A DNA stretch of 64,000 nt from Castor canadensis (lineage: Eukaryota > Chordata > Mammalia > Rodentia > Castoridae). The stretch is taken from positions 143,753,343 to 143,817,342 of the forward strand of contig NC_133394.1 in assembly GCF_047511655.1 (NCBI RefSeq), written 5' to 3'. The translations under genes and the position numbers were made by a program. Below, in pieces: positions 6,138 to 49,605 of this stretch. The notes below the pieces were generated by a model, which was not told where the DNA came from, searched no databases, and was given only the letters and a program-made list of their open reading frames with translations. Each line of letters opens with the position of its first letter. Position 1 is the stretch's first letter.

Positions 6138-6465
6138 GTTGGGCACTGGTGGCTCACACTGTAATCCTAGCTCCTCGGAAGGCTGAGACTGTGAAGTTCA
6201 TGCTTCGAGGCCAGCCAGGGCAAAAATTTATCAAGATCCCCTCTCAGCAGTAAAAGCTGGGTGTGGTGGCGTGTGCCTGTCATCCCAGCTACCGGAAAGC
6301 TATTATAAACAGCAGTCCAGGCTAGCAAAAATGCAGGACCCTATCTCAAAAATAACTAAAGCAGAAAGGGCTGAGGGCATGGCTCAAGAAGTAGTGTCTG
6401 CCTAGCAAGAGCAAACCCTGAGTTCAAATCCCAGAACAGCCAAAAAGAGAAAAAAAAAAAAAACC
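6138..6465 (+). mobile_element. Trimeric SINE (B1-like, B1-like, ID-like)
   Basis: The first B1-like monomer (about 6138-6245) is followed by the linker ctcagcagtaaaagctggg, then a second B1-like monomer (6249-6350), the linker aaataactaaagcagaaagg, and an ID-like unit with box B gagttcaaatccc and an A tail. Confidence 0.8.
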
Positions 6466-7213
6466 TACCCCAAAAAGGCACACTTCCAAAGAATGCACTG
6501 TGCCATTTCACGAAACATCACAGCACAATTGTTCTTTAAGTCACTTCCATTAACTCCTGCTTCAAGTCAATACTTACAAAGCGAAAATGAAACTTTTAAA
6601 CCTTTATGCTTTTTCCAGAAAAGTTGGCTCTCCAAATGTCTCACACATAAACTAGCCATAGGAGCACTTAAAAACCTAGAAAAATATGAAAAGGGCTGAG
6701 TGAAGAATCCTTTACAGAATTACAGTGATTCATTTTTCCTAAAGAAAACTTCCTTCTTTTTATAATAATGGAAGTGAAATGCTTTTTCATGGCAAATCAG
6801 GGAAATACAGAGAAATAAAAAGAAGAGAAAAGAAAAAAAAATCTTGGCTCCATTGCTCATGAGACAACTGTGGTGTCAGTGGCAGTGGTTGTAGTCTGTG
6901 ATCAGAAGATTTCCAAATTCTTGGGTCCCACGTGAACGAATCTATAGAATCCATGGCGGGACACGGGGGTGTGACAGAGTTTATTACAAGTTAGGGAAGG
7001 AAGTACAAAAGGGGCACGGTGGACCAGGTGGAAGCTGGAAGCAGTCTTTCTTTTTCCCAGGTGCTTTAAAACTTACGCTGGCCTATGGGACGGGAAGAAC
7101 CTGTGATGCCCAACCAAGAACTGATGGTGGCCCTAGGCCCAGGTGAGGGTGGTTTGAGTTGTCCCCAAGCTGGGGTGTGGATAACCTACCTTCATTTGCA
7201 ATTTGGAAGAAGG

Positions 7214-7250
<37 letters not shown>

Positions 7251-8309
7251 GAATGTTCAATTTGAAATACAATATTAAGTCATACATTTTCTAAGAGTGC
7301 CAAACTCCCTGATTCTAGCCTGCCTCAGTTGGTGTGTTGTACTTTTTGGCTTGCTTTTCATGGTTTGGGTTCGCAGTTATTTATCTGTTCATCATTTTGT
7401 TCTCAACAGCACCAGTGACCTTGCAGATGGAGGACCCAGCCAGGACCTGGAGGTGGAGGCTGAGCGGCCATAGTGCCGTGATGCTAGGTGAGGTCTCTTT
7501 TTTCTTTTTCACACAGGTCCATCCGGAGAAGCTGAAAAGAGCAGAGGACACAACCAGGGACCTTCAGGTTGGCATGGTCCAGTTGTGTTGGGGTCGGGGG
7601 CAGAACCCAGCAGTTAAAGACCAAGGAAGCATTTGGTTTTCTGCCTCTGCAAATGGTCCTGATTCAAGGCATGTCCCGGCATGTGCGTGATTCCGCCCAG
7701 GTGTGCTGGTCACACCCAGCATCTGACCACATAGGGGAACCAGGACAATGACTGGCTCCAAGAGTGGCCAACCTCTAAACCACCTCAACCACACAGTGTG
7801 GTGGCTGCTCCCCGCTCCACCTCGTCCCCAGGGTCACACTGGGCCTTGGGAAAGACCAGCTCAGTGGGGACAGACGGTCTCGTGGGGTCATCTGGGGCCA
7901 GGGGAGGCTGTAGTGGGGGCACAGAGTAGAAAGAAAGGGGGAGCAAGGACCACACCCAGTGCTCGGGTGCAGCAGTTCTGTTCTTTCACAGGCCGCTGAT
8001 GGGGCCTGTGCCAGACACTGGAGAGACAGAGGACAAATGGCCCCCTGATATGAGATGACAGGTGAACGTGTTGCAAAGGGACAGTCAGTGGCCAGCTAGA
8101 GAGGAAAGGCCTGGGAGTGAGGGAGCTGTGCCATGGCTCCTGAGGAAGGGGGAGTGTGTTTTAGAGACAGCAGGGGGGCCAGAGTGGCTGGTGTCCAGCT
8201 TGGACGGTAAAGGTGATAGAGTTGGGGACAGCGGGCAGGTGACCACAAGCCATGCTGGGTACTTTGGGCATTGTGCTGAGTGACAGAAATGGGAACACTA
8301 AGGGCTCGG
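6466..8309. other. Unique intergenic sequence
   Basis: Apart from the AG microsatellite I recognise nothing. The ORF at 7334-7690 has no family signature. Confidence 0.5.
7216..7250 (+). repeat. (AG)n microsatellite
   Basis: An uninterrupted AG run, then agggagagg. Confidence 0.95.
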
Positions 8310-8615
8310 TTTTTATTCTCAGGGGCAAATTAGGGCTTTGAGATTGCAGGTGCTCTACTACTCGAGCCGTGCCCCCGGCCCTTTTTGTGCTGGTTATTTT
8401 TGAGATGGGGTCTCTCGTGTATGTCCAAACTGGCCTGGACCACAATCCTCCTATTTTTGCTCTCCCAAGCAGTTGAGATTACAGGCATGTATCACCATAC
8501 CCAGCTTTTTTTTATCAGTTGAGATGGGGTGTCTTGAATCTAGGCTGGCTGTGAACCTCCATCCACCCAATCTGTGCCTTCTGATTACAGGCATGCGCCA
8601 CTGCACTGGGCTTTT
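8310..8615 (-). mobile_element. Trimeric SINE (B1-like, B1-like, ID-like)
   Basis: On the + strand the order is reverse ID-like unit, reverse B1-like monomer ending cccagctttt, then a second reverse B1-like monomer beginning gttgagatggggt and ending at gccactgcactgggc. Confidence 0.75.
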
Positions 8616-8789
8616 TTGGGCTTTTGAGCAAAGAAGCCACGGGATTTGGCTTCCATTGCTGTGGTGGCTGGGTGGAGAATTAGACCACAAAGGACAAGAT
8701 GGAAGCAGGAAGCAAATTAGGGCCCCTCATTTTCAAAGACTCTGAGGCTTAGGGACAGGTCTCAGAGTGCACCTGACAGCACCACGACT

Positions 8790-9010
8790 GTCCTGAATCT
8801 TTGGTGACCTTCCTTCACCTTCAGGACAGGGCCCCTGCAAGACCCTGTGTGACATGCTCCAGCCACTGCCCCCTTTCCTTGTCACCCATCACTTTTGGGG
8901 CTCCCCTCTTGCCTCCTCTGGAGGTCATGTGCCCATTACCTACCTGGCCTTCCACAGCCTCCTCCACCTCGTCACCTGGCTAAGTTCTGTCACCCTTCAT
9001 ACCCTTAACC
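8790..9010 (+). repeat. L2-like fragment
   Basis: A CT-rich sequence with gtgaccttccttcaccttca resembles the L2 3' coding/UTR region. Confidence 0.4.
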
Positions 9011-9544
9011 ATCTTTCTCAGGGAAGCCACCTGGGTCCCCCAAAGACTCAGCTGGGTGGGCTCAAGGCCCCTGAAGCCCCCCTCCTCTGCTTTGGTGGTA
9101 CTCCTTACGTTTAAGAGTCCCTCCTGCGTGCTGGCCTCCACCTTGAGCCCCAGGGGCCAAGGGCAGACCAGCTTCCCTCCGTCTCACCGCCAGCACTTGG
9201 GCCAGGAGCACAGTCTCAAGAATCTGCAGGCATCTCCCCCGCCCTGAGGTCTGGGACGCTTGACAATGAATTCCCTGCTACACGAAGGGCACACTGCCAA
9301 CGTCACCGTCAGTAAGTGGGAAGACCAGGCATCAGACTTCTTTACAGCCCAGGACTTGAACTCAAGTCTTTGCTTAGCTGCAGCCAGCAGTTGCTGCTGA
9401 ATGAGACTTTTCATTTTTCTCAGTTTCCCCAGTCGTAAAGTGAAATTTTCAGGGATACTTGCTCTCCAGATGCCCCCCAACCTCATCTGACCACAAGAAT
9501 CTCTCCATCCCTGGGGACACTCCTTAAGAATACTTATTTCTAGG

Positions 9545-9750
9545 GCAGAGTATGGTGGTGCACACCTGTAATCCCAGCTACTTAGGAGGAAAAAGAGGGG
9601 AATCATGGTTCTAGGACAAAAAGTTTAAGACCCAAACTGAACAACAAACTAAAGAAAAAAGGGCTGATGGAGGGGCTGAAGTGGTAAAGCGCCTACCTAG
9701 CAAGTATAAGGCCCTGAGTTCAAAGCCCCAGAACCACAAAAAACAAAATA
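9545..9750 (+). mobile_element. SINE: one B1-like monomer + ID-like unit with the trimer-type linker
   Basis: A B1-like monomer (gtggtgcacacctgtaatcc) is joined by aacaaactaaagaaaaaagg to an ID-like unit (aagcgcctacctagcaagta). The linker is that of the trimeric family, so this is probably a truncated trimer. Confidence 0.75.
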
Positions 9751-9850
9751 AACCCCATTTATTTCTGTTCTCACCTTAACCCGTAGCATCCCAACTCCAG
9801 AAACAGGCTTGGGACTCCGGTTCTGCTTGTGTAATCAAAAGCTTCGGGTA

Positions 9851-9975
9851 AAAGCTGGGAGCAGGTGGCTCACACCTTTAATCCTAGCTACTCGGGAGGC
9901 AGAGATCAGGAGGATCGAGGTCTGAGGCCAGTCTAGGCAAATAGTTCATGAGACCCTATCTTGAAAACACTCATC
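9851..9975 (+). mobile_element. B1-like monomer, solitary
   Basis: This is the left B1-like unit of the dimeric SINE (gcaggtggctcacaccttta to gagaccctatcttgaaaa). The ID-like half is missing. Confidence 0.75.
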
Positions 9976-10594
9976 GCAATCTCAGGTGACTCCTGTCACC
10001 AAATACGTTTTGGACGCACATTTCCACGGGCTTCTTTGAAAGAAGGACCCAAGAGAGTGAGGTCACAGAGAAGGGACCCACGAGCGTGACTGAAGCCTGC
10101 TGTTTATGGATGTAGGTTATTCCAGGCCTTGTGGAAGGTTCCTGAATTTCCACTGAGTGTGCAGGTTCCTGACCACTCATTGCTCTGACAAGCTGGGACC
10201 AAGTCAGAATTAAAGAACCTGCAACAGGAGCACAAGCAAAGGTGGGAGACTCAGAGGCTCGAGAAGCAGTGACCGCGGCCCAGAGAGGGCAGCCAACCTA
10301 CCTGGAGGCACACAGCTGTCCACAGTCTCCACTGTCCTTTTCCTTCTGGATGACAGGGGTGCAGCAGGGAAGGGTGGGATCTGCACAGAGGACTGGGGAG
10401 CCCGTGGTTCCCCTTCAACATCACATCAGTGGTGGTGACCGCCCCTGTGAACACAGCATAGCTTATGGAGGTGGCGGTGCTCTCAGAGAGCTGTTAACCG
10501 ACTGACCCCACACCCTCTTCTCCCGTGATCGGGGAACAAAGCACTTTTTTTTTTTTTTTTTGGAGCACCTCAGATATTTTTCCATGAGTCAGAT

Positions 10595-10790
10595 ATGGCC
10601 AGGCATGGTGGTGCACATCTGTAATCCCAGCTACTCAAGAGGCAGAGGCAGGAGGATTGAGACTTAAGGCCGGCCTGGGAAAAGTTTAGAAAACGTATCT
10701 TAAGACTGGGGTGTGGCTCAGATGGTACAGCACTTGCCTAGCAGGCGAGAGGTCCTGGATTCAATCCCCAGCCCTGCAAAAAAAAAAGTC
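10595..10790 (+). mobile_element. Dimeric SINE with short target-site duplication
   Basis: A B1-like monomer (ggccaggcatggtggtgcac) is joined to an ID-like unit (gctcagatggtacagcactt) with an A10 tail. The flanking repeat agtcagata is present on both sides. Confidence 0.85.
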
Positions 10791-11007
10791 AGATAATTAA
10801 AACTAAGATCAATGTTGGATCAAAGGAGACAAACTGATCCTCACTCAGCCATTGCCTATCCTTCCAGAACCTCATCTGGAAACTGAGTGACGCCACCATC
10901 ACTGTGTGGCATTGTGTGTTGGTGTTTACAGGTGAGGTAAAATGCCATGCAGCACCTGGCACAGATGCTGTCAGCACTAGTTAAATTAAGGAAGAGACAG
11001 ACTGGGT

Positions 11008-11318
11008 GCAGTGGCTCATGCCTGTAATCCCCACTACTGAGGAGGCAGACATGGAGAGGCTGGTAGTTCCAGGTTAGCCTGGGGGCGGTGAAGTTGTCAC
11101 GATCCCATCTCAAAAAGCAAGCCAGCATGATGGTGCACAGCTGTAATCCCAGCTATGCGGGAAGGATCGTGGTCTAAGGTCATCCAGAGCAAAGTTGTAA
11201 GACCTTATCTGGAAAGCAACTAAAGCAAAAAGGCCTGGGGGCGAGGCTGAAGCGGAGCACCTGTAGGAGGCCCAAGGCCCTGGGTTCAAAGCCCAGTACT
11301 GAAAAAACAAAAAACATA
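11008..11318 (+). mobile_element. Trimeric SINE (B1-like, B1-like, ID-like)
   Basis: Two consecutive B1-like monomers (gactgggtgcagtggctcat and gccagcatgatggtgcacag) are joined by catctcaaaaagcaa. The linker gcaactaaagcaaaaaggcc and an ID-like unit with an A tail follow. Confidence 0.8.
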
Positions 11319-12114
11319 AAAACCCACCACCACCACCAGTAAAAGCTGCATGAATGGGAAGGAGGGCATGGCCCACTGTGCCTGGATGTGCTGGATGCGG
11401 AACTGTCCTCTGTTCCCCCATCCTCTATCAGGTGCTGGACCAACTGCTGCTGGACCTTCCTGCGTGAACCATGCAGGCCATGACCAGGTGAGAGGCAGAG
11501 CACCCGCACCCTCCCGAGAGACCCCGCCCCCAAACAGTGGCTCAGGCCTCATTGAGATTTATCTGTCACTCACAATGTCGCAGGGATAGGGTATGTCCAC
11601 CGCTGAGCTCTCAGATTCCTTCCATCTTGTGCTGATGTCCATGGCACTGGTGTCAGTGTCAACTCATGGCCCAAGAGGGCTGTTGAAGCTCCAGCCATCA
11701 GTCCAAAATCTGATCAGCAGATAGGAGGAAGAGATGAAGGAGGGAGGCACCCCTGTCCTCTAAGAACACCTCCCTAAGATTGTACAGGGCACTCCTGCTT
11801 AATGCCACTTGGCCAGTATTTAGTCATGGGGTGGGGGGGGGAGCACACTTAGCTCAAGGAAGCCTGGGAAATGTAGTCTTCACTTGTGGAGGTGTTTTGC
11901 TGAATCCAAGGTCTCCATTAGTAAAAGAAGGTGGGGTAATAGTGGGTGCTGGCAGACATGTGTCTTGGCACATTTATTATTTATGGAAAATATATAATAT
12001 TTGTTATTATGCTTCAATCCCACGACGACCAGTCACTTTTCGGTGTTGAGTGACAGGACACACACAAGTAGGCGTCAAGTAGGTGTCAAGATGTCAAGTA
12101 GGCAGAGGGATCTT

Positions 12115-12450
12115 CCATTTCTCCTCCTCCTTCTCCTTTTGGCGGTCCTGGAGTTTGAACTCAGGGCCTCACGTCTTCGAGGCAGGTGACATTCACTTAA
12201 GCCCTAGCCCTTTCTGCTTTAGTGTAAGGTAGAGTCCCACATCTTGCCTGAAGTCAGCCTCAGACTGAGATCCTCCTACCTGTGCCTCCAGCATAGCTGG
12301 GACTATAAAGCTGGATAGTCTGCCCAGCTTATTGGTTAAGATGGGGTCTTGCTGACTTTTTTCCCCTGGGCTGGCTTTGAACCACAATTTTCCTCATCTC
12401 TGCTCCCAAATAACTGGGATTACAGGTGTGGGCTGCGGACCCAGGCCTTT
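12115..12450 (-). mobile_element. Trimeric SINE (B1-like, B1-like, ID-like)
   Basis: A reverse ID-like unit follows a pyrimidine-rich tail, then the linker ctttctgctttagt, a B1-like monomer, the junction cccagcttattggttaagat and a second B1-like monomer. Confidence 0.75.
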
Positions 12451-13880
12451 CCCTGTGCTTCGGGTGACTGACTACTAATTGGGGTTCCCACAATTCTCTC
12501 CCTAGGGTGTACTAATTTGCCAGAGTGGCTCAGGGGACTCAGGAAAAGTCATTTATTATAAAGGACAGGACAAAGGATACCAATGAAGACACTTGTGGGG
12601 CCAGGTGTGGGGAGGGGTGTGAGCTCCTGCACCCTCTTGGAGTCACTGCCCTCCAGGGACCCCCCACCCAGAAGCTCTCGGAACCCTGTCCTTTGGGGTT
12701 TTGGTGGAGACTTTTCGCACATGGACGGCCATGTGGAAACATGACAGGGCAAAACGGTGTGACGAAATGGTAATCCAGGGGACCAGCCTGGCCTGTCTGC
12801 TCAGATTCCTCCCCCTGGCCATGAAATGGGGTCTCTCACTCTTATCAGGCAAAGTAGATCACAGCATTTCCTTATCCCCAGCTTCAGGACAGAAAGGTGG
12901 GGGGAAATTACGGCTTCTGTGACCCGCCTCGGGGGAGAGAACTTCTGGTTTCTGTGGCTGGTCTTGGGGAGGGAGCTGTGAGCCAAGAACTAGGGACAAA
13001 ACCAAAATATGTGTCACATCTTCTGCTAGGGAATGTGTAGCCCGGCTTTTAGCAAGGGCTCGCTTTGTTGGATCCACAGTCCTACTGTGTGCTTTGCTTA
13101 AAGAGCAGAAACTGAGCCCAGAGCAAGCTCAGAGCTGGTCCGAGGTCAGGAGCCAGCTCACACGAAAGCAGCCCTGGCCTCTGACTGTGGGACCAGGGCC
13201 CCTTCTGGGCCTTGGCTGCTCTTCTAGTTTTCCCTATGGTGGCACTGAAGGGGACACCCTGTGCTGGGGAGTCCTGGGTGCCAATCCTCCAGCTACCCTC
13301 TTCTATAGTCTCTGGAATGTGCTGCTGTTGCCCAGCGCCAAGGACAGAGGGACAGGGGGCTCTGGGTGGGGAGCTGGGGAGGGTCCTAGAAGCCATGCTT
13401 GTGAAGGTCCCGGCCTGGCACGGTTGTCAGCCCTCCCCAGGGGCCCCGAGTGATTGCACCTGCAGGGAAGGGTGAGTAGGATTTGTGCTTTGAATGTCTT
13501 GAGATGAGCGCTAATGGGGAGTCCCACTGGTGACTCTCAGCGACCTGTACGCTTGACTTGGAAGACCACTGGCCTGGATGCTGTCAAGGACTCCTGCAGC
13601 CTCACTTCACTCCACCCTGAGGAACCAGGTGCCCAGGGAATCAACTCGGGGATCCCAATTATCCACAGGATGCCCCCCAGGCAGGGATCGCCCCTGTGGG
13701 GGACCCAGGAGCCAGGGCATGTGGCTTTCTGCTGATTCTGTACCCAGGGGCAGAGAGTTCCTTTATTGCAGTAAAGGTCCCCAGGGCCCCAGGCCTGCTA
13801 GACATGGCTGACATCTTCTGTCTGGAGAGAGGGGACGTGCCTGGTGTCCTGGGCCACATGGGGAAGAGGAGGGGTTTTAT
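12451..13880. other. Moderately GC-rich unique sequence
   Basis: Overlapping short ORFs occur on both strands, up to 119 aa (13094-13453), but none has a domain, a splice-consistent neighbour or biased codon use. No CpG enrichment is obvious. Confidence 0.5.
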
Positions 13881-14859: not shown

Positions 14860-15078
14860 CTTTATTTTTGGTGGGACTGGGGTTTGAACTCAGGGCTTCA
14901 CACTTGCAAAGCAGGCGCTCTACCGCTTGAGCCACTCCTCCAGTTCATTTTGCTCTAGTTATTTTGGAGATTGGGGGCATGGGGAGTGTCTCACAATTTG
15001 CCCAGGCTAGTCTCGAACAGTGAGTGATCCTCCACTCTCAGCCTCCCAAGTAGCTGGGATTACAGGCGTGAGCTCAGC
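14860..15078 (-). mobile_element. Dimeric SINE (B1-like + ID-like)
   Basis: A well-preserved reverse copy: ggtttgaactcagggcttca, aggcgctctaccgcttgagc, the linker cattttgctctagttatttt, and a B1-like unit ending ctgggattacaggcgtgagc. It lies about 90 bases from the 5S retropseudogene. Confidence 0.85.
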
Positions 15079-15169
15079 TTAGGCTTTGAACCAAGGTCAG
15101 TTTAGCTCCAAAGCCTGTGTGCTCCCTCTCCTACACACTTCCTATAACTGCCTAGAACTGACCCCACAA

Positions 15170-15285
15170 AGGACATACTTGTCTCCCATCCAAGTACTAA
15201 CCAGGCCCGACCCTGCTCAGCTTCCGAGATCAGACGAGATCGGGCGTGTTCAGGGTGGTATGGCCGTAGACAGGACATACTTGTC
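15170..15285. repeat. Target-site duplication pair around the 5S retropseudogene
   Basis: The direct repeats are identical over 14 bases. The last three bases of the left copy (gtc) also fit the 5S sequence, so microhomology may have helped the junction form. Confidence 0.9.
15181..15271 (-). pseudogene. 5S rRNA retropseudogene, 3'-truncated
   Basis: On the minus strand this is an almost perfect match to the first 91 bases of vertebrate 5S rRNA, from gtctacggccataccaccct to cttggatgggagac. The last ~30 bases of the gene, including the Pol III terminator region, are missing. Fourteen-base direct repeats (aggacatacttgtc, 15170-15183 and 15272-15285) flank it, and there is no A tail. This is the structure of a tailless retropseudogene: an RNA reverse-transcribed from an internal site and inserted by L1 machinery. 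Confidence 0.9.
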
Positions 15286-15419
15286 ATATCAAGAAGGCTT
15301 CTAGGACCTGCTTCTGCGGAGCTGTGCCTCTAGAGTGTTCAGTTACCTCCAATGTCCTTGCAACTCCATCTAAGCCACAGCCAATGTGGGCTGCTCTGAG
15401 TGCAGCACAGTAAACTGAG

Positions 15420-15498
15420 CCTCAAGAAGGAGGTGGTTAAGAGTTTGCCTTGCATTCACTAAGGCCCTAGGTTTGATCCCCAGTTCTGAAAAAATCAG
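15420..15498 (+). mobile_element. ID-like SINE fragment
   Basis: The motifs gagtttgccttgcattcact and taggtttgatccccagttct followed by a short A tract match a diverged tRNA-derived unit. Confidence 0.55.
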
Positions 15499-15499
15499 A

Positions 15500-19221: not shown

Positions 19222-19441
19222 AAGCCAGGCACCAGTGGCTCATGCCTGTAATCCTAGCTGCTCAGTAGGCAGAGATCAGGAGGATCATGGTTCAAAGCCA
19301 GCCTGGGCAAACAGTTCATGAGACCCTATCTCGAAAAAAGCCCATCTCACAAAAGGGCTAGTGGAGGGGCTCAAGGTGTAGGCCCTGAGTTCAAGCCTCA
19401 GTACTGAAAAAAAAAAAAGAAAAGAAAGAAAAAAAGAAAGC
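19222..19441 (+). mobile_element. Dimeric SINE with target-site duplication
   Basis: A complete B1-like unit, the linker aaaaaagcccatctcacaaa, then a shortened ID-like unit (ggctcaaggtgtaggccctg) with an A-rich tail. Flanking repeats aaaagggtatact (19209-19221) and aaaagagtatact (19442-19454) differ at one base. Confidence 0.9.
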
Positions 19442-19702: not shown

Positions 19703-19898
19703 GTTTGCAGTGGTGAACGGTGCCTGTAATCCTAGTTACTCAGGAGTCAGAGATCAGTAGGATCGAGGTTTGAAGCCAGCCCAGGCAAACGGTTTGAGAG
19801 ACTCTATCTTGAAAAAACCCTTCACAAAAATAGGGCTGGGGGAGTGGCTCCAGGTGAAGGCCCTGAGATCAATCCCTAGTACTGCAAAAAAAAAAAAA
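19703..19898 (+). mobile_element. Dimeric SINE with shortened ID-like half
   Basis: It shows the same B1-like unit, linker (aaaaaacccttcacaaaaat) and shortened ID-like unit (tccaggtgaaggccctgaga) as the copy at 19222, so both belong to one subfamily with an internal ID deletion. Confidence 0.85.
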
Positions 19899-27490: not shown

Positions 27491-27707
27491 AGCCTGGCAC
27501 CGGTGGCTCACATCTGTAATCCTAGATACTTGGGAGGCTGAGATCGGAAGGATAGCTGTTTGAAGCCAACTTGGGCAAACAGTTCATGAGACCCCATCTC
27601 CAAAATAACCAGAGTGAAATGGACGGGAGGTGTGACTCTAGCAGTAGAGAGCCTGCTTTACAAGTAAAAAGTCTTGAGTTCAAGCCTTACTCCCACACAC
27701 ACAAAAT
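27491..27707 (+). mobile_element. Dimeric SINE (B1-like + ID-like)
   Basis: A B1-like unit (gcctggcaccggtggctcac to gagaccccatctccaaaata) is joined to a diverged ID-like unit (gcagtagagagcctgcttta, gagttcaagccttactccc). Confidence 0.75.
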
Positions 27708-29322: not shown

Positions 29323-29510
29323 TTTTTTTCAGTACTGGGGTTTGAACTCAGGGTCTACACCTTGAGCGACTCCACAAGCCTTGGTTTGGGATGGGGTTTT
29401 TCCAGAGAGGGTCTTGCGAACTATTTACCTGGTCTGGTTTTGAACCGTAGTCCTCATGATCTCTGCCTCTTGAGTAGCTAGGATTACAGGCATGAGTCAC
29501 CAGCACCTGG
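29323..29510 (-). mobile_element. Dimeric SINE with target-site duplication
   Basis: A reverse ID-like half (tactggggtttgaactcagg) with an internal deletion is followed by a reverse B1-like half. Flanking repeats ctgtcactgata (29311-29322) and ctgtcattgata (29511-29522) differ at one base. It inserted at the end of a MIR. Confidence 0.9.
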
Positions 29511-29934
29511 CTGTCATTGATAGTATTAGGAATGAAAATGAACCCAGGGGTCACAATTGTCTTATTTTGCAGACAAGGAAGCTAAGACCGAGAAATTAAA
29601 GTCACAATGCTAGAAAGGGACAGTACCAAAGTTTGAGGCAGGTCAGGGCCAGTTGCTCTCAGGCCAGCAAACTCTCCTCTTCCACCAGAACCGGTCTTAG
29701 CAGGTGAGCACCGGCTTCAGGAGAAAGGGCAGGTCTGACTAGAACAGTAGCCTTGCCATGTCCCTAGAGAATTTCTAGGGACTTCCATTTCTTATTCTGC
29801 GATTGTGCACATTCGTGATCAATTTAAACTTTAAAAACAGAATTTTTCCTTTTCCAGTCCATTTTATGTTAGATTCTAGGCTAAGTGAAAGAGCTGTGGA
29901 ATAAACATTCCTGCCCATCATTGGTTTGTCCATC

Positions 29935-37342: not shown

Positions 37343-37344
<2 letters not shown>

Positions 37345-38624: not shown

Positions 38625-38848
38625 CAGAGTCGGGTGCTGGTAGCTCACACTTGTAGTCCTAGCCACTCAGGAAGCAGAGATCGGGAGGATCTCTGTTTGA
38701 AACCAGCCCCTGGCAAACAGTTCTTGAAACTCTTATCTCAAAAATACCCAGCACAAAGAAAAGGGCTGGTGGAGTGGCTCAAGTGATAGAGACCTGCCTA
38801 GCAAGTGTGTGAGTTCAAACCCCAATACAGCACCCCCCCCCAAAAAAA
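38625..38848 (+). mobile_element. Dimeric SINE with target-site duplication
   Basis: A complete B1-like + ID-like element with the linker aaaaatacccagcacaaaga. The tail is C9 followed by A7. Flanking repeats gaatatctt lie at 38616-38624 and 38849-38857. Confidence 0.9.
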
Positions 38849-40375: not shown

Positions 40376-40379
40376 TAAT

Positions 40380-42110
40380 TACTATTAATTTAGCATTTGA
40401 GAGGAAGAATTAGCCAGTTGTGAAACGAAGGTTGATGTAGGGAGGGGTCATGGGAATAAGATGTCTCGCAAAGGCATCATGAAAATGTCCTTGCCACTGC
40501 TCCCTTGGGAACATTCTACATGGAATTGCCTTGCTGAAAGCTGCTCTATTACTTCCGAGGTCAAAGGGCACATCTGCTTGGCAAGCCCTGGGGTAGCAGA
40601 ATGGTCTAGAAGCCAGGGCTTTCTGTGCTGCTGGTTTATTGAATGGCCTTCAGTGCTTTGCAAGAGCATCTGTATCTCCCAGGCTCTCGTTTTTTCTTTC
40701 TTTCTGTGTTCTTTCCTCTGCATCTGGGGTAAAGCTTGCTTTGCTCCATGTGAGCTCACTGGTACTCCCCATCTAATTTGAGGGGTGGGAGACGGCTGTA
40801 GGTGGTAGTGCTATTTTTAATTATTACACTCCTCTTTACAAACTGAAAACTAAGTGACATAGCTTTTCAGTTCAAGGCACAAACTAGCAAGTGGCCAACT
40901 GAGAGACTTTTATCTGGAGGCGAGGACCAGTTATTTCTCCCATAAGCCACAGCTACCTTGTGGATAATTTTTCCTTTTTCTGTGGTGCTTGTAAAATTAC
41001 CATGGGTTAAAAAAGAAACAAACAACAAAATCCCCCAGAATAAAAGAGGAAAAAAAAAAAAAGACGAGATGAAAAGAAAAACAAAGAAAACAAGTTAGGG
41101 AAAAGTAGAATGACCTTGGATTAGTATGAAAAGTAGTAATTTTTGTATATGAAAAATGGGTCTTGCATTGGGTCTACTGTAGGACGGAGTAGTGCTGCTT
41201 TCAGTTTTATGTGGCTGTGATTAATTTGTCACAAGTTAAGACCCAGATCTGAACTATTCTAATGAAGCAAAGTGATGTGGAGGGGGTGCGGATCTCATCT
41301 GTTTTTAGTTTTATAAAATTGTCTAAAGCAACCCTTTACCCTGTTTTGGTAGATTTTCAAAATTAGCTTTAGGATGGTTGACCTATTTCAAAAAGCATTT
41401 TTGGCTACTCTGATTTGCCCCTGGGATCCGCTATGTGTGGGTGTGGAGTGGGTAAGGCAGAAGTGGGACAGGGAAGAGAGACACTGTGCCCCTGGAGTCT
41501 GGGGCAGCCTCAGGGTGTTGCAGTGAGCATAGAGCGCTCTCTCCTACAGCTAACGAAGCTTAGACGATCAAAACAGAGTTGGTCATCAGGACTCTGTGAT
41601 GTGTCATGGCACTCAGTGAGGGAGGAGCCACCATGGCTGGACCTTGCTGGTAGGATTCCCTCTGCCTCCCACGTGGGGTCCACTCTGCACCTCCACACTT
41701 CATGCCTTCTCCTCAGCCCCTGCTCCTCTGACCCCTGACTCGCAGTGGTGGAGACCCAGGCTGCCACATCACGGGTTTTAGGTCAGCTTCCTGAAGAGTG
41801 GCTGGGAGTCCCTTCTCTTCCAGTGTCAATTCTAAATTCCCAGGTAGGGCGCCCTGACCCCCCCGTGACAATCACTTACATGAATCTATTGAGTAATTGT
41901 GGTCAGGGTGGCACTCTGGGTGCCTGGCCACTGAGTCACCACTGTCACTGTGACATTAGAGGTAGAGAGAGGGGGTGGCCAGGTGGCCAGCCCAATAGGT
42001 GTGATTGTGCCAATGTCCACATAGCATTGGGCTCCAACACTTGTGTGTTCTTACCTAGTTCACACAAAGCCAGCATTGTCCTTTTGAGGTCACATGACTC
42101 ATTTGGCAAT
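40380..42110. other. Unique PROM1 intronic sequence
   Basis: An A-rich stretch lies near 41040-41090. No repeat family or exon was recognised. Confidence 0.45.
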
Positions 42111-42119
42111 GGGTCTCAC

Positions 42120-42151
42120 TATAAATAAATAAATAATAAATAAATAAATAA
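42120..42151 (+). repeat. (AAAT)n microsatellite
   Basis: A taaa run with one shortened unit. Confidence 0.9.
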
Positions 42152-42289
42152 GGTCACAGAGGAAAGAACTCATGAGTGTCGTCCTGCTCCTCCCTCCGGG
42201 TGTGGGTCACTGCCTGACAGCCTGCAACAATCCTCTCCTTCCATCCAGCAGTGTTAGGGGACTTAGACAAGTTGCCCACTCTGAACTAG

Positions 42290-42400
42290 GTCCTGTCTGT
42301 GTCTGATTTGACAGAGGAAGAAGCTGAGGCCCAGAAGACTGAGTGAATTGTCAGGGCTGAGCTGGGTTTGAATGTGAGTTGCTGGCTGTGAGTTTGGCCT
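42290..42400 (-). repeat. MIR fragment
   Basis: The segments gaggaagaagctgaggccca and gagctgggtttgaatgtgag are a reverse MIR. Confidence 0.65.
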
Positions 42401-43129
42401 CATCATTGAGGCCATCACTTGTACTTTTGCCCAGAAGGACAGTGAGACTCAGACGGCTTGAGGGAGTGTCTCAAGGTCCCTCGTGGTGATTGCCAAGAGG
42501 CTACACCCAGCTTTGACCCAGGGTCCTGGGACCCCAAGCCTGGCTGTTCCCCAGGCTGCCTATGTTGCCTGTACGGAGCAAGAGATGTGCTGTGTAGACT
42601 GCTTCTAAATGTCACCAGTGCCTTGTGTGTGTGCGTGTGCGTGTGAGGTGCCAGTGCTAGGGGGCATGTCCCAGGCTGTAATGGCGCTGTGATCCTGCGT
42701 GTTTCTCAAGCTTCACAGGATAGCCTTTTAGCCAAACTGAAAAACCCATCCTGCTAACCCTTGTCCCATTTCCTTGTCTGCAAACCCCCGGAGGTGTGAT
42801 AATAGAGGCAGGTTGCGCACAGGCAGGAAATGTCTTTTGAAAGACACAAAAAGTCAAGCTCTTAGCTGTGCAGACCCAAGATGACATTCTACAGGAGGTC
42901 TCCAAACAGGAGATACAGGGAGGCCGCCCCAGCAGCTGAGGGATGAAGCCAGCCCGGTGTATAGCATCACTTGTCTCCTTGGAACCAGGCAGAAGTGGAG
43001 TCTTTTAAGTCTGCATTTGGAGAAGCAGCCGAGGTGTGGTCTGGACAGGGCAGTGCCAAGCAGAGCTGCCAGGAGAGATGGCAACTACTTGATTATTTCT
43101 AGATTCAGAGAAGAGTTCTGTGCTCCGAG

Positions 43130-43330
43130 TGGTGGCGAAGAGCCTGCCTCCTGGAACCATTGCCTGGGTTTGAATCCTGCTCTGTGATGTTGGCCAAGAC
43201 ACTTAACCTCTCTGTTCTTTAGTTATCCCTCTGTAAAATGAAAATTATTAATTGTGCCTACTTTTTGCATCATCACAATATTTAAGTAAGTAACATTTGC
43301 AAAATGGAGTGTGACTGTATAAGGTGCGTG
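43130..43330 (+). repeat. MIR, near full length
   Basis: The segments gcctgggtttgaatcctgct, gacacttaacctctctgttc and ccctctgtaaaatgaaaatt are in MIR order. Confidence 0.85.
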
Positions 43331-43403
43331 TTTATCAAAAACTTTTAAATGAATCTCGGATCTTGGTGATCGCTTGGACAAGAGAGGTATTTATCTGACC
43401 CTC

Positions 43404-43825
43404 ACCGTATTAGTTTGTAAGACAGCTATAACAAGTGATTCCAGTCTGGATGCCCTGAGCCATCCCAAATGCATTCTGTCACAACTGCAAGCCACTGATC
43501 TGAAATCCAGGTATAGGCAGGGCCTGGGGATCCTCCCTTGCTTCCTCCCATCTGATGGCCCCAGTTGTCCCTTGGACTGTGGCAGGATCACTGCCATGTC
43601 TGTCTTCACAAGACCACCTTCTGGGTCTCTGGTCCGAATCTCCTTTGCTTCTGCAGACACCTGGCATTGGGTTTAGGCCCCACGAAGTCCAGGATGAACT
43701 CATTTCAGCATTGTTAACTTAACGTCTGCAAAGACCCTTTTCCCAAATAACGTTGCATTTCCAGGAATTGTCTGGAGTTAGGACTTGAGTAAGTCATTTT
43801 AAGGGCCACCATTCAGCCTGTTACG
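43404..43825 (-). mobile_element. MaLR LTR (MLT1-type)
   Basis: The reverse pattern begins gtattagtttgtaagacagc, has catgtctgtcttcacaagac, and ends ccattcagcctgttacg. Confidence 0.7.
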
Positions 43826-43937
43826 TTTCTTACTCCATTCACTCAGTAATGTTGTGCAGCTCAGAGGTATCAAGGAATGTGCTGAAGGTCATATTTTAAA
43901 AAAATGAACCAGATTGAATTGAAACCTCTCTCTCTCC

Positions 43938-44208
43938 CTCTTTCTCTTGGTGGCACTGGGATTTGAAATCAGTGCTTTGTATTTGCTAGGTAAGTGCTCT
44001 ACCACTTGAGCCATGCTCCAGCCTTTTTTGCTTTAGTGATCTTTCAGGTAGGGTCTCCTATAGCCTCTGTGTAGTTTGCATTATGGTCATGCTGCCACCA
44101 TGTCTGGCTTACTGACTGAGATGGAATTTCAATAACTTTTTCCTAGCCTCAAGCCATGATTCTCCCAAATAGCTAGGATTATAGGTGTGAGCCATTGTGC
44201 CCAGCCCT
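43938..44208 (-). mobile_element. Trimeric SINE (B1-like, B1-like, ID-like)
   Basis: The reverse ID-like unit (ctaccacttgagccatgctc) is followed by ttttttgctttagtg, a diverged B1-like monomer, the junction ggcttactgactgagatgg and a second B1-like monomer ending tgagccattgtgcccagc. Confidence 0.75.
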
Positions 44209-44624
44209 GACTCTCATTTTAAGTGCTCATGGTTCAATTTTGCAAATACTTAGTGAGCCTCTCCTAGTGTGAGCCTGGTGATACTTGGCCACTGGCATTG
44301 CTGTGTTTGGGTTTCTCTTCTCCAAATGCTGACATTCAGCCAAGAAAACCTCTCCTGCCTACCCCACAGTCAGCTGTGGCCATGGACAGGCTGGCCCACA
44401 CTCAGTTTGAGGTGTGTATGGTGTGCGCAAGGCTGTCCAGAGAAGGAATTAAACATGGTGGGGAAATCAGAGGAGGCTTCCTGGAGGAAGGAGTGTTTGA
44501 ACTGAGCCATGAATGTGTGGAGGAGATAAAAGCAGAGAAGGATCCAGGTGGACACAGCTGCACAAGTGAGGCTGAGCGAGGCAAGTTGACACGTGGGCCC
44601 ACGGAATGTGCCAACTGAACTTCT

Positions 44625-44965
44625 TAAACAAATTCCTGTGGATCATTTTGAGTATATACAAAAGCAAAAGCAGGATTGTTTTCCCCATGGTGCAATTTCA
44701 ACCGGACCCATCTTGTTTTTGCTCAATCCCCAGATAAACCTCCTGATTCTTCGTTTATTTCCAAGCAAATCTCAGTCATTCTGACATTTCATGGGTGATG
44801 ATTTCAATATGCATCTCTAGAACTCAAGACCCAATGCTGTTAGTGCAGTGTAGAAAGTTTATCACTAATTCTTTAATACCAAATGTTCAGGAAGTGTTCA
44901 GATTGCTTGACTGTTTCGTAGCTAGTTTTTAAATCGTTTGTTTGAGTCAGGGTCTGAATACATCT
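44625..44965 (+). repeat. Ancient LINE fragment
   Basis: The sequence atatgcatctctagaactca followed by atcactaattctttaatacc and aggaagtgttcagattgctt fits the same old LINE region as the piece at 21405. Confidence 0.4.
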
Positions 44966-45212
44966 CTCTTTAATTAATCAAACGCCTTTCTTTTCTCACT
45001 TGCACTTTATTTGCTGACAAGCCAAGTTGCTTTTTCTGTTGTTCCCCAGAGGCTGACATTGGCGGTTGCAGCTTCCAGAGGTTCTTTGCCATGTTCTCTG
45101 TTCTGTTATCCTCTAGTGGAGGACTGCCTCTCAGACGCCCCCGTGGCTACGTCCATGAACGCTCGGTCCTTTATTTAGGATGACATAGTGTTTGTACAAT
45201 CTGTGCACATTC

Positions 45213-45293
45213 TCTAGCTACACAGCCCAGGCTGAACTCGAACTCCTCTTGCCTCTACCTGCTGAGTGATGGGATCGCCATGCCTGGCCTCTC
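45213..45293 (-). mobile_element. B1 SINE fragment
   Basis: The + strand reads ctacacagcccaggctgaac then gaactcctcttgcctctacc and ends gatcgccatgcctggcct, the reverse of a classical B1. Confidence 0.7.
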
Positions 45294-45295
45294 AT

Positions 45296-45440
45296 GAACT
45301 TAAATCACCTCTAGGTTACTCGTAACACAATGTAAATATTGTTATTCTGCATTTTTTAGGGAATAATGAGAAGAAAAAGAAGTCTGCATCTGTTTGGTAG
45401 AGGTGTATTTTTGTTCAAATATTTTCAAACAGGTGCAGAA
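45296..45440 (+). mobile_element. Tigger/MER2-like fragment
   Basis: The segments aacacaatgtaaatattgtt and ttttagggaataatgagaag resemble the interior of the element at 20350. Confidence 0.55.
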
Positions 45441-46097
45441 TCCCTTGCATCTAGAGGCGTGAGTGTACTTACAAAGACCAGGTTCAGGTTCACCCTTGAG
45501 GTAAAACCGTTTATAGACGGTGGCACACATTTGCACCTGGAGACAGAAAATTGTTGGTTGTGTCTGTATTTCAGATGTTGGCAGCACTGACGGTCAGCGT
45601 CTAGACCCAGTCACTCATACAGGGCCCAATCCTTTCAAAATTGTTTGTAAGCCTGCTCTAAAATATATGAAACCTTTTAAGAAAGAATAGGGTACCTTGC
45701 ATGTTTTGTAACTTGAATTTTTCACTTAAAGTGTCGAGGGCATCTTTCCACTTCTGTTCCTCTTACAGTGTTGTCTAAATTTAAAAGGTTCTTTTAAGAA
45801 AGGAACACAAAACATTCATTCACTGATCTTTTGATGTAGGGCCAACACTTAAAATTTGTTTGTATTATGGGTTAATTGTTTGAAGTTCCAAATTAGTGTT
45901 TCTGATATAAATCACACTCAAAATACATCCTTTATAATTTTGGTTTCTTTGTTTTGGTTTCTTTTAAGTGTAACAAAAGCAAAAACACTTGGAGTTCAGA
46001 GCTCTCCATTTTTAGGTCATCTTTGTTTCTCCCCAGATTTTTACAGTTTACCCACACACTTTCATCCAAATCACTGCCTTTATTATGTCTTTGTAAA

Positions 46098-46170
46098 ACA
46101 TTTGACTCGAACCCACGGCCTCAAGCATGCTAGGCAAGTGCTCTACCTCTGAGCTAAACCCCCAGCCCCT
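46098..46170 (-). mobile_element. ID-like SINE
   Basis: A reverse tRNA-derived unit (ctcgaacccacggcctcaag, aagtgctctacctctgagct, cccccagcccc). Confidence 0.7.
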
Positions 46171-46293
46171 TGTCTTAGTTTCTTAATGCTCTCTTGAGTC
46201 CATCTTTCTTCAGTTGGTGTAATAGTCAATTCTTATATACTGACAGTGGTACTTACTATACATTAAAGCGGAGGGGAGAGGCTTGGGAGACCC

Positions 46294-46612
46294 CGTATTA
46301 TGGGTTGAATTATTTCCTCTCAGAGTTCATATCTAACTCCCTGTACCTCCAAATGTGGCCTTATTTGGACTATTGTCACTGCAGGTGCAATAATGAGGTC
46401 ATACTGGAGTGTGTGTGTGTGGGGGGGTGTGACTTAATCCAATATGGCTGGTGTCCTTTTAGGCAGGAAAATTTGGAGATAGACACACACAGGACAGGCA
46501 GAATGACAAGTGAAGGGAGCTTGTGCTGCCACAAGGCAAGGAGCCAGGACAGAGGTGGGACAGATTCTTCCCTGGAGCCTCAGAGGACTGTGGCTCTGTC
46601 CACACCTTGATC
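46294..46612 (+). mobile_element. MaLR LTR (MLT1-type)
   Basis: The plus-strand pattern is gtattatgggttgaattatt, aatgtggccttatttggact, aatccaatatggctggtgtc and acaccttgatcttggatttc. Confidence 0.75.
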
Positions 46613-47002
46613 TTGGATTTCATTGTACTGCTTGTTTTCCAAATAAACCTTCCCTGCTGAACAGGGAATTAAAGTCAAGCCTTCCTGGCTCCAAGGTCCC
46701 AGTAATCTTGCGTTTGTTCAGTCTATTTTTAGGAGTTCTGCTCTTTTGCTTTTAGAAGTTTTTGAATTGAAATGTCTAATTTCATTTTTATTCATATTTC
46801 CTAATAGTAATTAACACTACAAAATTTTTGCTGAAAATACTTTGGGCTTCATCCTATAGATTTTGAAATGTGATATTCTCATTTTTATAACATTTATTGC
46901 TCTTTTTAAAATCTAGATTGACTAGTGTCGTTTGAGTAAATTTTACTGTTCTGAAAGACAATGATAAAGAGTAAATATAGTCAGTTTATTTCAAAGCATT
47001 AT

Positions 47003-47082
47003 GTTGGAGGTGTGGCTCAAGAATCACAGTGCCTGCCTCACAAGCACAAGCCCTGAGTTCTAACCCCATAGCAGAAAAGAGA
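47003..47082 (+). mobile_element. ID-like SINE
   Basis: A plus-strand tRNA-derived unit (ggaggtgtggctcaagaatc, tgcctgcctcacaagcacaa, gagttctaaccccatagcag) with an A-rich tail. Confidence 0.7.
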
Positions 47083-47387
47083 AAATCTTTAGCTGTGAGT
47101 TCTAAAATCCCATGGCTTTGTTCTGAGCCTCAGCTGTAAACCTGGAGTGATCTGAGTGACTGTCTTCCAGTTCTCTGGGGTCAGGAGGAAAAGTGTCCCT
47201 TTAGTTACGGTTAGGATGTTGGCGAGGCTGTGTTCATTGTGTTCCCAGAATTTCCTTTCTGTGAGGACACTGGGGAAAAGAAGAAGGAGAAGAAAAAAAG
47301 TAACTTTTCCTAACAGCCTAAGCAATTCCAGGTGGCTACTGCTGGAAACTATACAAGTGACTTACGTTTAAGGTGCCCGACTCCCTT

Positions 47388-47584
47388 GCTTTCTCCCTCC
47401 CTCCCTCCCTCCCTCCCTCCCTCCCTCACTCTCTCCCTCTCTCCCTTTCTTCCTTCCTTCTTCCCTTTCTTCCTTCCTTCTTTTCTTCCTTCCTTCCCTC
47501 CCTCCCTTCCCTTCCCTCCTTCCCTCCCTCCCTTCCCTTCCCTCCTTCCCTCCCTCGTTCCTTCCTTCCCCTCCTTCCCTCCCT
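47388..47584 (+). repeat. (CCCT)n/(CCTT)n polypyrimidine tract
   Basis: About 195 bases of almost pure pyrimidine. An internal block ccctccctcccttcccttcc is repeated near 47500 and 47523. Confidence 0.95.
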
Positions 47585-47599
47585 CACACCTGGACTTAT

Positions 47600-47745
47600 T
47601 TATGTTATAATTATATACATATGTATATGTATGTATGTATATTTCTATGTATATGTATATATGCATGTGTGTATATTTGTATGTCTATGTATATATGTGT
47701 CTGTATGTAGATATATGTATGTTTGTATGTATGTATGTCCCTGTA
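47600..47745 (+). repeat. (TATG)n repeat
   Basis: Alternating purine/pyrimidine tatgta repeats follow the polypyrimidine tract. Confidence 0.9.
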
Positions 47746-47899
47746 AGCCTATAAAGACATAAAAAATCCTGGAGACAAACAAAACTAAAATGAGAAAAAA
47801 AATTCTAAAAATAAATAAGATTAAAATCATACAGGTCAAATTGAGTAGGGAAGAGAAAAGCAGCAGAAGGTGACTTACAACTAGGATGGAGAACTAGGG

Positions 47900-47972
47900 G
47901 AAGCTCCCCTCCCCCTCCCCCTTCTCTCTCCTCCCCCTCCCCTTCCACCTCCCCCCACCCTCCCCTCCCCGG
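47900..47972 (+). repeat. C-rich pyrimidine tract
   Basis: A run of cccctccccc/cttcc blocks, about 70 bases. Confidence 0.85.
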
Positions 47973-49385
47973 GATCCAGCATGGAAGCAGCTCCCTGGCT
48001 GGCCTTCCTTCCGAGAGCTGATGGGTTTACAGTAAGAGGCTTGAGAGCCAGACGTGCTTAGGTGACATGTTCTTATTTGGTGTTTCTCTCGCAGGACCTG
48101 TAAATTCCCAAGTGGAGACTGTAAATGTTTCACTTGATGCTGATTAAATATGATGCGCTTATTAATTGAGTGCATGGTTCTCCTGGAGCCCATTCATCAC
48201 TTTCTTATTGGTCTCACGTGGGGAGGTCTGGAGGGCGGCTGAGGGCCACCCGTGTGGTGCTCCACAGCGCCTGGTGTCAAGAGCAGACTCCCAGTGCGGA
48301 CTGCACGCTCGCAAGGAGACCACTGCACATGCAGCTGTGCGTGGAAACTAAGCTGCGTGGAACAATTATCTGCTCTGAGCTTCATCTCTGAAATGAGGCA
48401 TGGCAGTAACAGAAGGAGACCTGTCTTCTCAAAGGCCACCTTGCTCACATGGAAAGTGGACGTCCTGTGGCAGAGTGTTTCAGATGTGTCCCCTTTTCTC
48501 TGGCAGGAGTGCCCATCCTGACCTTTCACAGGTGGGGGCTGCCTTTGGATCTTCCAGGTCTTCTCACGCTGGAAAGCTCAGGTGCTGGTCCCCCCGGGTC
48601 TCCAACCCAGCCCAGGGCCTCTGATCTCACACTGGGAGACCTCCCCTCACTTTGACCTCCACAGCCCTGTGTTATGAACCTCCCTTTGCCTCCCTCTCCC
48701 ACTGAGGCTGTTTTCTGGAGAAATCCCACATCTGGTTTCAGCATTTCCCAGTTGTTACATTTCTCCCTTCCTGCACCCAGCAGCTGACTGCTTCTAGCAC
48801 ACATCACAGCTGTGCCAGCTGGACTCACTTTGCTCGTCCATCCCCGGCTCCCCAAGGACAGTGCTGCTCCTGGCAGCCCCACTGTTACCCTGTAAATCCT
48901 CCTTCCCACCTCCTGCTGCCATTCCTCCTCCTCTGTCCCCAACCTCCAGCTGAACCCTCCCGGCCAGCCAGGGACCTCCTTCTGGATGGAGAAAACAGAT
49001 GGAGCCCCGTGAAAACTGGCTCATCCCTGCCCTGTCTTGTTTCTGGTTTTTCACAAAGGTTACATATGCATAAGACATTTTTTTTTTCTGCTTAGGATTT
49101 TTTTTTTCCTCCAGTAGGGTTTTAGTCAAAAGATAGGATTGTTTTCCAAAGGTTTTGAAAGAATTATCAAGTTGCCAGAAGGTTTTAAGGGCTTATATCA
49201 CCTCCAATAATTTGTTGAGTATTTAGAAATGAATAATAAATGACATCACATCACATTACTCTGCTAGTGACGTTGACTGTTTCCCCATTTTTTTTTTGTT
49301 TCCTTTTTTGAGGAGTTGGTCTGTGAAATGACTTTGCCTTGTGTATGCAGGAGTGTGGTAGTCTTTTTATTATTCATTTGACAAC
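47973..49385. other. Unique PROM1 intronic sequence
   Basis: GC content is higher around 48200-48950, with several short ORFs on both strands. None resembles a PROM1 exon or another known protein. Confidence 0.45.
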
Positions 49386-49387
49386 CC

Positions 49388-49605
49388 CAATTACTGGGGT
49401 CTGAACTCAGGGCCTTGTGTTTGCAAGGCAGGCGCTCTAACACTTGAGCCACACTGCCAGCCCTTTATGCTTTAGTTTTTTTTCACATAGCGTCTCGTTT
49501 GCCTGGGGCTGGCTTTGGGCTGGGATCCACCTATTTATTCCTCCATAGTAGCTGGGATCACAGGCATGATTCACCACACCCAGCTTGTTGGTTGAGATGT
49601 CATCA
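49388..49605 (-). mobile_element. 5'-truncated trimeric SINE
   Basis: A reverse ID-like unit, the linker ctttatgctttagttttt and one full B1-like monomer are present. The junction cccagcttgttggttgagat follows, after which the outer monomer is cut short. Confidence 0.7.

What the first reader, a model, noticed from the sequence alone, without database searches (positions are those of the whole stretch)
6138..49605. A trimeric SINE family (B1-like + B1-like + ID-like) with diagnostic linkers
Six loci (6138, 8310, 11008, 12115, 43938, and a truncated one at 49388) share the same order of two tandem 7SL-derived monomers and one tRNA-derived monomer. The junction between the two B1-like units is similar in all (reverse sense near cccagctt-tggttgagatgg). 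The linker before the ID-like unit is actaaagca(g)aaagg. Ordinary dimeric copies instead carry linkers such as cccatcacaaaaaagggc or the reverse of cattttgctctagttatttt. Shared junctions mean the trimer was itself a mobile source gene, not chance nesting. Dimeric B1-ID SINEs are known in several rodent families, but I do not recall a trimeric form being described for this lineage.
Basis: partly seen in the sequence, partly recalled or inferred. Interest (0 to 1): 0.72.

Follow-up and report, generated by a model that had tools for sequence, protein, structure and literature searches.

The report
Three-part jumping gene in beaver
The beaver genome carries an old, very abundant jumping element made of three fused pieces (two from the signal-recognition-particle RNA gene, one from a transfer-RNA gene) that was copied as one unit, and the younger two-part beaver elements may be descendants that lost the middle piece.

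Summary
Four of the six loci carry B1a–B1b–ID; one has lost most of B1b and one is cut within B1a. Sixteen copies cross the B1–B1 junction in 250 kb taken at preset coordinates of the same genome, about 180,000 copies genome-wide (Poisson 95% 103,000–293,000). Target-site-like repeats flank the whole trimer (24 copies, p=5e-5; 27 more, p=1.5e-4) and do not separate the two B1 units. So the trimer itself was retroposed, probably by L1.

The genome is a beaver: four Castor primers match exactly in one locus.

The trimer is roughly twice as diverged as dimers A and B (0.217 against 0.098 and 0.094). The dimers' B1 body is B1a-like (28 of 28), while their linker aligns with the trimer's second linker. 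I infer, with less certainty, that trimers gave rise to dimers by loss of the middle B1. In consensus, B1b has lost its box B; B1a and ID keep theirs.

I found no description of this trimer in open-access searches with capped listings. Repbase, Dfam and SINEBase could not be consulted.

The parts
6137..6452 (+). Trimer copy 1: B1a 6137-6248, B1b 6255-6367, ID 6368-6446
8327..8612 (-). Trimer copy 2: B1a 8519-8606, B1b 8382-8506, ID 8327-8381 (shortened ID)
11000..11314 (+). Trimer copy 3: B1a 11002-11116, B1b 11128-11231, ID 11233-11310; junction 1 worn
12131..12447 (-). Trimer copy 4: B1a 12329-12433, B1b 12211-12310, ID 12137-12206
43941..44206 (-). Trimer copy 5: B1a 44117-44205, B1b remnant with internal deletion, ID 43942-44022; junction 1 worn
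49392..49607 (-). Trimer copy 6, 5'-truncated: tail of B1a, B1b 49464-49585, ID 49392-49463
1847..2021 (-). Dimer type A (B1 + ID with 23-nt internal deletion), for comparison
19234..19415 (+). Dimer type A, for comparison
19707..19894 (+). Dimer type A, for comparison
29323..29512 (-). Dimer type A, for comparison
1108..1288 (-). Dimer type B (linker ccaaaataaccagagcaaaatggactggagg in consensus), for comparison
14863..15073 (-). Dimer type B, for comparison
27496..27697 (+). Dimer type B, for comparison
38629..38831 (+). Dimer type C, for comparison

Best explanation
This is a composite, non-autonomous retroposon (SINE) of beaver, about 320 bp plus an A-rich tail: B1a - junction (catctcaaccaat(aa)aagctggg) - B1b - linker (aaaaataactaaagcaaaaagggctggggg) - ID - A-rich tail. 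Shown: fixed architecture, shared junctions, high copy number, insertion as one unit with target-site-like duplications. Inferred: RNA polymerase III transcribes it from the box A/box B promoter of B1a at the 5' end, and L1 proteins copy it by target-primed reverse transcription from the A-rich tail; B1b is an internal passenger whose box B is lost in the consensus. The confidence given here is for this core claim (one mobile three-part unit). The history is less certain and is scored in the section on the most novel reading: a fresh B1 joined in front of an older B1-ID dimer, and later loss of the middle B1 that made dimers A, B and C.
For: Junction 1 recognisable in 22 of 28 first copies and 30 of 33 further ones; linker in 27 of 28 and 33 of 33. 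All 33 loci outside the training set cross junction 1 (31 had been picked by similarity to copy 1, L029 and L033 had not). 16 junction-crossing copies in 250 kb at preset coordinates, in 12 of 25 stretches. Flanking repeats around the whole trimer, absent at the inner junction: 24 copies, mean score 6.85 against 5.53, permutation p=5e-5 (7 of the 24 similarity-chosen); 27 further copies, 6.57 against 5.59, p=1.5e-4, inner-junction tests p=0.89 and 0.13, with one perfect 16-nt repeat (L045). Many of the best repeats begin with A-runs, as expected for L1 (recalled), though they abut an A-rich tail. Box B matches GWTCRANNC (recalled motif) 7 of 7 in B1a and ID consensus, at best 5 of 7 and out of place in B1b.
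Against: Most copies show no clear target-site repeat: 7 of 24 and 6 of 27 reach score 8; none of the five window copies tested reached 7. Junction 1 is worn beyond individual recognition in 6 of 28 and 3 of 33 copies. Nine T-type B1b-ID pieces without B1a occur in the survey (6 random, 3 window); they may be truncated trimers or separate dimers. The RNA fold of the consensus is no more stable than shuffles (z -0.36). Transcription and L1 dependence were not tested.
Confidence: 0.9

Rival explanations
1. Chance head-to-tail nesting: separate B1 and B1-ID elements landed one after another in each other's A-rich tails.
For: Such nesting happens here: L011 5396-5506 is an extra B1 beside a trimer that has its own flanking repeats; ID>B1 and ID>ID neighbours occur 11 times in 264 kb. 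PMC8466645 leaves this question open for rodent B2 multimers (passages read).
Against: Shared junction in unselected copies, 17 of 19 B1>B1 neighbours being trimers, repeats around the whole and none at the inner junction.
Confidence: 0.02
2. The young dimers are not descendants of the trimer: a B1a-like B1 was joined independently to an ID with a similar linker, and the trimer is a side branch.
For: Tree support is very low (UFboot 16). Scored over linker plus ID, 54 of 62 trimers are nearest the trimer consensus and only 3 nearest B, by 1-3 bits. The 5'-end character is not associated with linker type in trimers.
Against: The dimers' linkers align with the trimer's second linker but their B1 body is B1a-like; 7 of 61 trimers score nearer the B-type linker and tend to share gctgag with dimer B; trimers are older.
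Confidence: 0.4
3. The trimer spread by DNA-level duplication (segmental or satellite-like) and not by retroposition.
For: Tandem SINE arrays and SINE-derived satellites are known (PMC10702118, passages).
Against: Hits lie on many different contigs; flanks differ by eye in the 24 copies printed; A-rich tails and flanking repeats.
Confidence: 0.01

Closest known systems
Primate Alu (dimeric 7SL SINE)
   Same: Two 7SL-derived monomers joined by an A-rich linker, moved as one unit (PMC7245038, passages)
   Different: Here both monomers are B1-type, and a third, tRNA-derived unit follows
Rodent B1-dID and other B1+ID dimers
   Same: B1 followed by an ID-derived monomer; the beaver A/B/C/D dimers are of this general kind (name and definition recalled, not checked)
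   Different: The trimer carries a second B1 between a 5' B1 and the ID
Tree-shrew Tu SINEs and GarnAlu of bushbaby
   Same: Fusions of 7SL- and tRNA-derived SINEs (PMC7245038, passages)
   Different: Different lineage; not compared at sequence level
Jerboa Dip/B1 multimers (up to eight units)
   Same: Head-to-tail rodent SINE multimers including trimers (PMC8466645, passages)
   Different: For B2 multimers its authors left open whether they are nested or true mobile units; the beaver trimer has one fixed architecture and repeats around the whole
SP-D-Geo, PB1D, B1F and SINE/ID as annotated in beaver
   Same: Names used for beaver SINEs (PMC5335264, passage); PMC5295618 Table 7 counts Alu/B1 and IDs apart (passage)
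   Different: The words trimer and dimer do not occur in the main text of PMC5335264; the sequence of SP-D-Geo could not be compared

Membership tests
SINE (short non-autonomous retroposon) | Dispersed copies with common ends and A-rich tail | tested here: met
SINE (short non-autonomous retroposon) | Target-site duplications flank the whole element | tested here: met
   as a statistical excess; most single copies show none
[quoted passage not shown]
   box B in B1a and ID consensus 7 of 7; box A compared by eye with a recalled motif, last base of B1a off; transcription not tested
7SL-derived SINE (Alu/B1) | Similarity to the two ends of 7SL RNA with the middle deleted | tested here: met
   both units of L007 and 3 of 8 units of window copies 1-4; scores below Rfam gathering
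ID / tRNA-derived SINE | tRNA-like unit | tested here: inconclusive
   Three related ID units pass RF00005; the IDs of L007 and of the window trimers in 6000-12600 did not hit it; ID consensus of trimer and dimers align
Dimeric B1-ID SINE (B1-dID type) | Exactly two units, one B1 and one ID (definition recalled) | tested here: not met
   Two B1 units precede the ID
Chance nested SINEs | Variable junctions, separate duplications | tested here: not met
L1-mobilised SINE | Copied by L1 proteins | not testable with these tools
   A-rich tail and A-leading repeats only
Known repeat-library entry (Repbase/Dfam/SINEBase) | An existing consensus for this trimer | not testable with these tools
   No repeat library held; eight literature searches on the SINE found none

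The most novel reading that the evidence does not exclude
SINE architecture in the beaver lineage grew and then shrank. An old B1-ID dimer with a failing B1 promoter was rescued by a fresh B1 joined to its front, giving a trimer that reached the order of 100,000 copies. Trimers then repeatedly lost the redundant middle B1 to give the younger dimer families A, B and C. The similar B1 units would act as a built-in device for changing architecture. (Lowered from 0.45 in my draft, which had left out the contrary result.)
Probability: 0.4. Interest if true: 0.55.

Novelty: new variant of a known kind. Interest (0 to 1): 0.42.

Why it matters
Mobile dimers such as Alu are well known; a three-part SINE with fixed architecture and about 10^5 copies is unusual as far as I recall. 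It answers, for this case, the question that PMC8466645 leaves open for rodent B2 multimers: nested by accident, or moved as one. It would change how beaver SINEs are counted: the published beaver RepeatMasker table seen here counts B1 and ID apart. It could give markers for beaver and kangaroo-rat phylogeny, and a testable case of a SINE gaining a new promoter and later shedding the old one.

Tried and rejected
Considered a tetramer at L011 5058-5506: rejected, the extra B1 has its own tail and the trimer has its own flanking repeats. Considered D as an older precursor by age: not supported, its distances are lower than the trimer's in both measures. RNA folding of the consensus: no signal. 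A copy-level tree of B1 units: clean split, very low support. An earlier version of the flank test gave 6.96 against 5.78. An early alignment mixed orientations and was redone. A genome-wide count of junction patterns and a genome search with the trimer consensus did not complete.

Counts to read with care. The survey profile was trained partly on survey copies; only L029 and L033 are random and unseen. The 31 loci L035-L065 were chosen by similarity to window:6100-6600, so their shared junction is partly selection. One of the 32 remaining hits (C9:153386088, broken into pieces) was not fetched. Left out of the age test: 7 similarity-chosen trimers, 3 in their flanks, the truncated copies at 49392 and L027, and L035-L065. 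Of 46 chains called B1-ID, 32 were put by eye into groups A 12, B 11, C 5, D 4; 14 were not (5 too short for, 9 unassigned). The three association tests are not corrected for number.
Full report
What was checked. The six loci were read; five of them were aligned in sense orientation with seven copies found elsewhere in the same genome, and the sixth was added later. The copies show a first B1-like unit, a short junction, a second B1-like unit, a second linker, an ID-like unit and an A-rich tail, each worn to a different degree. A profile places the six window copies at 6137-6452 (+), 8327-8612 (-), 11000-11314 (+), 12131-12447 (-), 43941-44206 (-) and 49392-49607 (-). Copy 43941 has lost most of B1b; copy 49392 keeps only the end of B1a.

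Which genome. The window lies in G000, contig C9, an assembly of 2.81 Gb in 181 contigs. Of eight Castor fiber PAG-L primers from PMC5561160 Table 1 (passages read) tested on one 3-kb locus, four (ATG_F, IntronA_R3, IntronA_F, IntronA_R) match exactly, in compatible order and orientation; IntronA_R2 was not found with up to two mismatches; exon 2 and intron B should lie beyond the fetched stretch by the paper's intron length. IntronA_F occurs twice in the genome, on C10. So the animal is a beaver. The paper gives 40 or 48 chromosomes for the two beaver species (which is which is recalled: 40 for C. canadensis). Nineteen of contigs C1-C20, whose lengths were seen (C14 was not), add up to about 2.68 of the 2.81 Gb, which fits 20 chromosomes and C. 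canadensis.

How common. I took 25 stretches of 10 kb at preset round coordinates. They hold 16 copies that cross junction 1, of which 15 are near full length, in 12 of the 25 stretches; the window holds 6, of which 5 are near full length by model span. Scaled to the genome this is about 180,000 copies, Poisson 95% 103,000-293,000; the range ignores clustering. In the same 250 kb near-full dimers number A 10, B 12, C 6, D 6; a further 6 T-type B1b-ID pieces lack B1a.

One unit or nested. (1) Junction 1 scores above 99% of shuffles in 22 of the first 28 copies and 30 of 33 further ones, the second linker in 27 of 28 and 33 of 33. Of the 33, 31 were selected by similarity and 2 (L029, L033) were not. 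(2) In 264 kb, 17 of 19 same-strand B1>B1 neighbours are trimers; the background of wrong-order neighbours is 7 ID>B1 and 4 ID>ID. (3) 5' and 3' flanks of the same copy match better than flanks of different copies: mean score 6.85 against 5.53 in 24 copies, p=5e-5, and 6.57 against 5.59 in 27 further copies, p=1.5e-4. (4) The same test between either flank and the inner junction gives nothing (4.98 against 4.77 and 5.33 against 5.43; p=0.89 and 0.13). The best repeats are 16 of 16 nt (L045), 15 of 17 (L061), 13 of 14 (L007, L038), 13 of 15 (L005). Against: only 7 of 24 and 6 of 27 copies reach score 8, some by A-rich stretches, and none of the five window copies tested reached 7.

What the parts are. 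In L007 both B1 units match the two ends of Rfam Metazoa_SRP with the middle missing (26.6 and 17.2 bits, below the gathering score), as for Alu and B1; 3 of the 8 units of window copies 1-4 do so at E<=5. Three ID units in the window, none of them in a trimer, pass the tRNA threshold; the IDs of the trimers tested do not hit it. At consensus level box B (GWTCRANNC, recalled) is intact in B1a, in the ID, and in the B1 of A, B and C, and broken in B1b and in the B1 of D (best 5 of 7). B1b also reads tgtcat in consensus (c in 16 of 28) where B1a reads tgtaat. I infer that B1a drives transcription and that B1b is a passenger.

Relation to the dimers. Four dimer families are seen in the survey, assigned by eye. 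A: linker with cccatcacaaaaaa and an ID that lacks 23 nt. B: ccaaaataaccagagcaaaatggactggagg. C: aaatatccaacacaaaaaggggctggtgg. D: aaaaacaaactaaaagcaaaaggactggg. Their linkers align with the trimer's second linker. Yet the B1 body of A, B and C matches B1a better than B1b in 28 of 28 copies, while D is closer to B1b in 3 of 4; the controls (28 of 28 B1a, 27 of 27 B1b) were part of the models. Two small insertions are shared by B1a and A/B/C and missing or shorter in B1b and D. Among 61 trimers, 7 score nearer the B-type linker; these carry the dimer-B-like gctgag in 5 of 7 against 15 of 54 (p=0.033) and a variant junction in 4 of 7 against 4 of 54 (p=0.004), but the 5'-end feature is not associated (3 of 7 against 16 of 54, p=0.38). 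Scored over linker plus ID, however, 54 of 62 trimers are nearest the trimer consensus and only 3 nearest B, by 1-3 bits. So trimers intermediate to dimer B are suggested, not shown.

Ages. Half the median pairwise distance at non-CpG-type sites is 0.217 for 20 trimers of window and survey, 0.183 for D (n=4), 0.136 for C (n=5), 0.098 for A (n=12), 0.094 for B (n=11); divergence from own consensus gives the same order. The trimer is clearly older than A and B and cannot have been made from them. D is not older than the trimer by these measures. A younger set of trimers may exist: seven good matches to copy 1 differ from their own consensus by 0.107, but they were selected by similarity and are few.

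Model. An older B1-ID dimer gained a new B1 at its 5' end; the resulting trimer had a working promoter in front and amplified; later some trimers lost the region between the B1 units and the resulting dimers amplified again. Shown: trimer as unit, relative age, mixed make-up of the dimers. Inferred: promoter use, L1, the fusion and the loss. A tree of B1 units puts 25 of 27 B1b and 4 of 4 D on one side and none of the 56 B1a/A/B/C with them, with UFboot 16, so the tree itself proves little.

Literature. Eight searches of the open-access library on the SINE gave no description of a beaver trimer; listings were capped (for example 12 of 1,402 papers and 25 of 240). Two more searches were for beaver primers. 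PMC5335264 (abstract, two of four text parts, passages) names beaver SINEs B1F, PB1D7, PB1D9, PB1D10, PB1D11, SP-D-Geo and SINE/ID; 'trimer', 'dimer' and '7SL' do not occur in its main text. PMC5295618 (passages) counts Alu/B1 320,643 and IDs 441,613 apart. PMC8466645 (passages) reports B1/B2 dimers and Dip multimers of up to eight units, and leaves open for the B2 ones whether they nest or move as units. PMC7245038 (passages) describes Alu as a fusion of two monomers and tRNA-7SL fusions in tree shrew and bushbaby. PMC10702118 (passages) says that SINEs amplifying as dimers are known. PMC13174262, PMC3747384 and PMC3030560 were seen in passages only. B1-dID, MEN, IDL-Geo and the B1 surveys of Kramerov and colleagues are recalled and were not read. 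The closed literature and the repeat libraries could hold this element.

Verdict. A real, abundant trimeric SINE of beaver, well supported as a mobile unit; a new variant of a known kind as far as could be checked; moderately interesting in itself, more so if the trimer-to-dimer descent holds.

Noticed in passing
window 15139-15271 (-): A 5S rRNA-like copy (Rfam 62.7 bits) whose 5S similarity seems to end after gatgggagac without an A-tail, with the direct repeat gacaagtatgtcct on both sides (by eye), like a tailless retropseudogene.
   Followed up: partly
window 1847-2021, 19234-19415, 19707-19894, 29323-29512: A dimer family whose ID lacks 23 internal nucleotides and is nevertheless one of the two youngest (0.098).
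   Followed up: partly
L011 5058-5506 (-): A trimer inserted beside an older B1, giving a false four-unit array; it has its own flanking repeat.
   Followed up: yes
window 10599-10786 (+): A B1-ID pair without the usual linker whose ID passes the tRNA threshold (34.3 bits); it belongs to none of groups A-D.
   Followed up: no
264 kb survey (window, L009-L028): 62 chains consist of a lone ID unit, so ID monomers (or 5'-truncated composites) are very common.
   Followed up: no
G000 C10:103048798 and C10:103077268: The Castor PAG-L intron A primer occurs twice 28 kb apart, suggesting a duplicated PAG-like gene.
   Followed up: no
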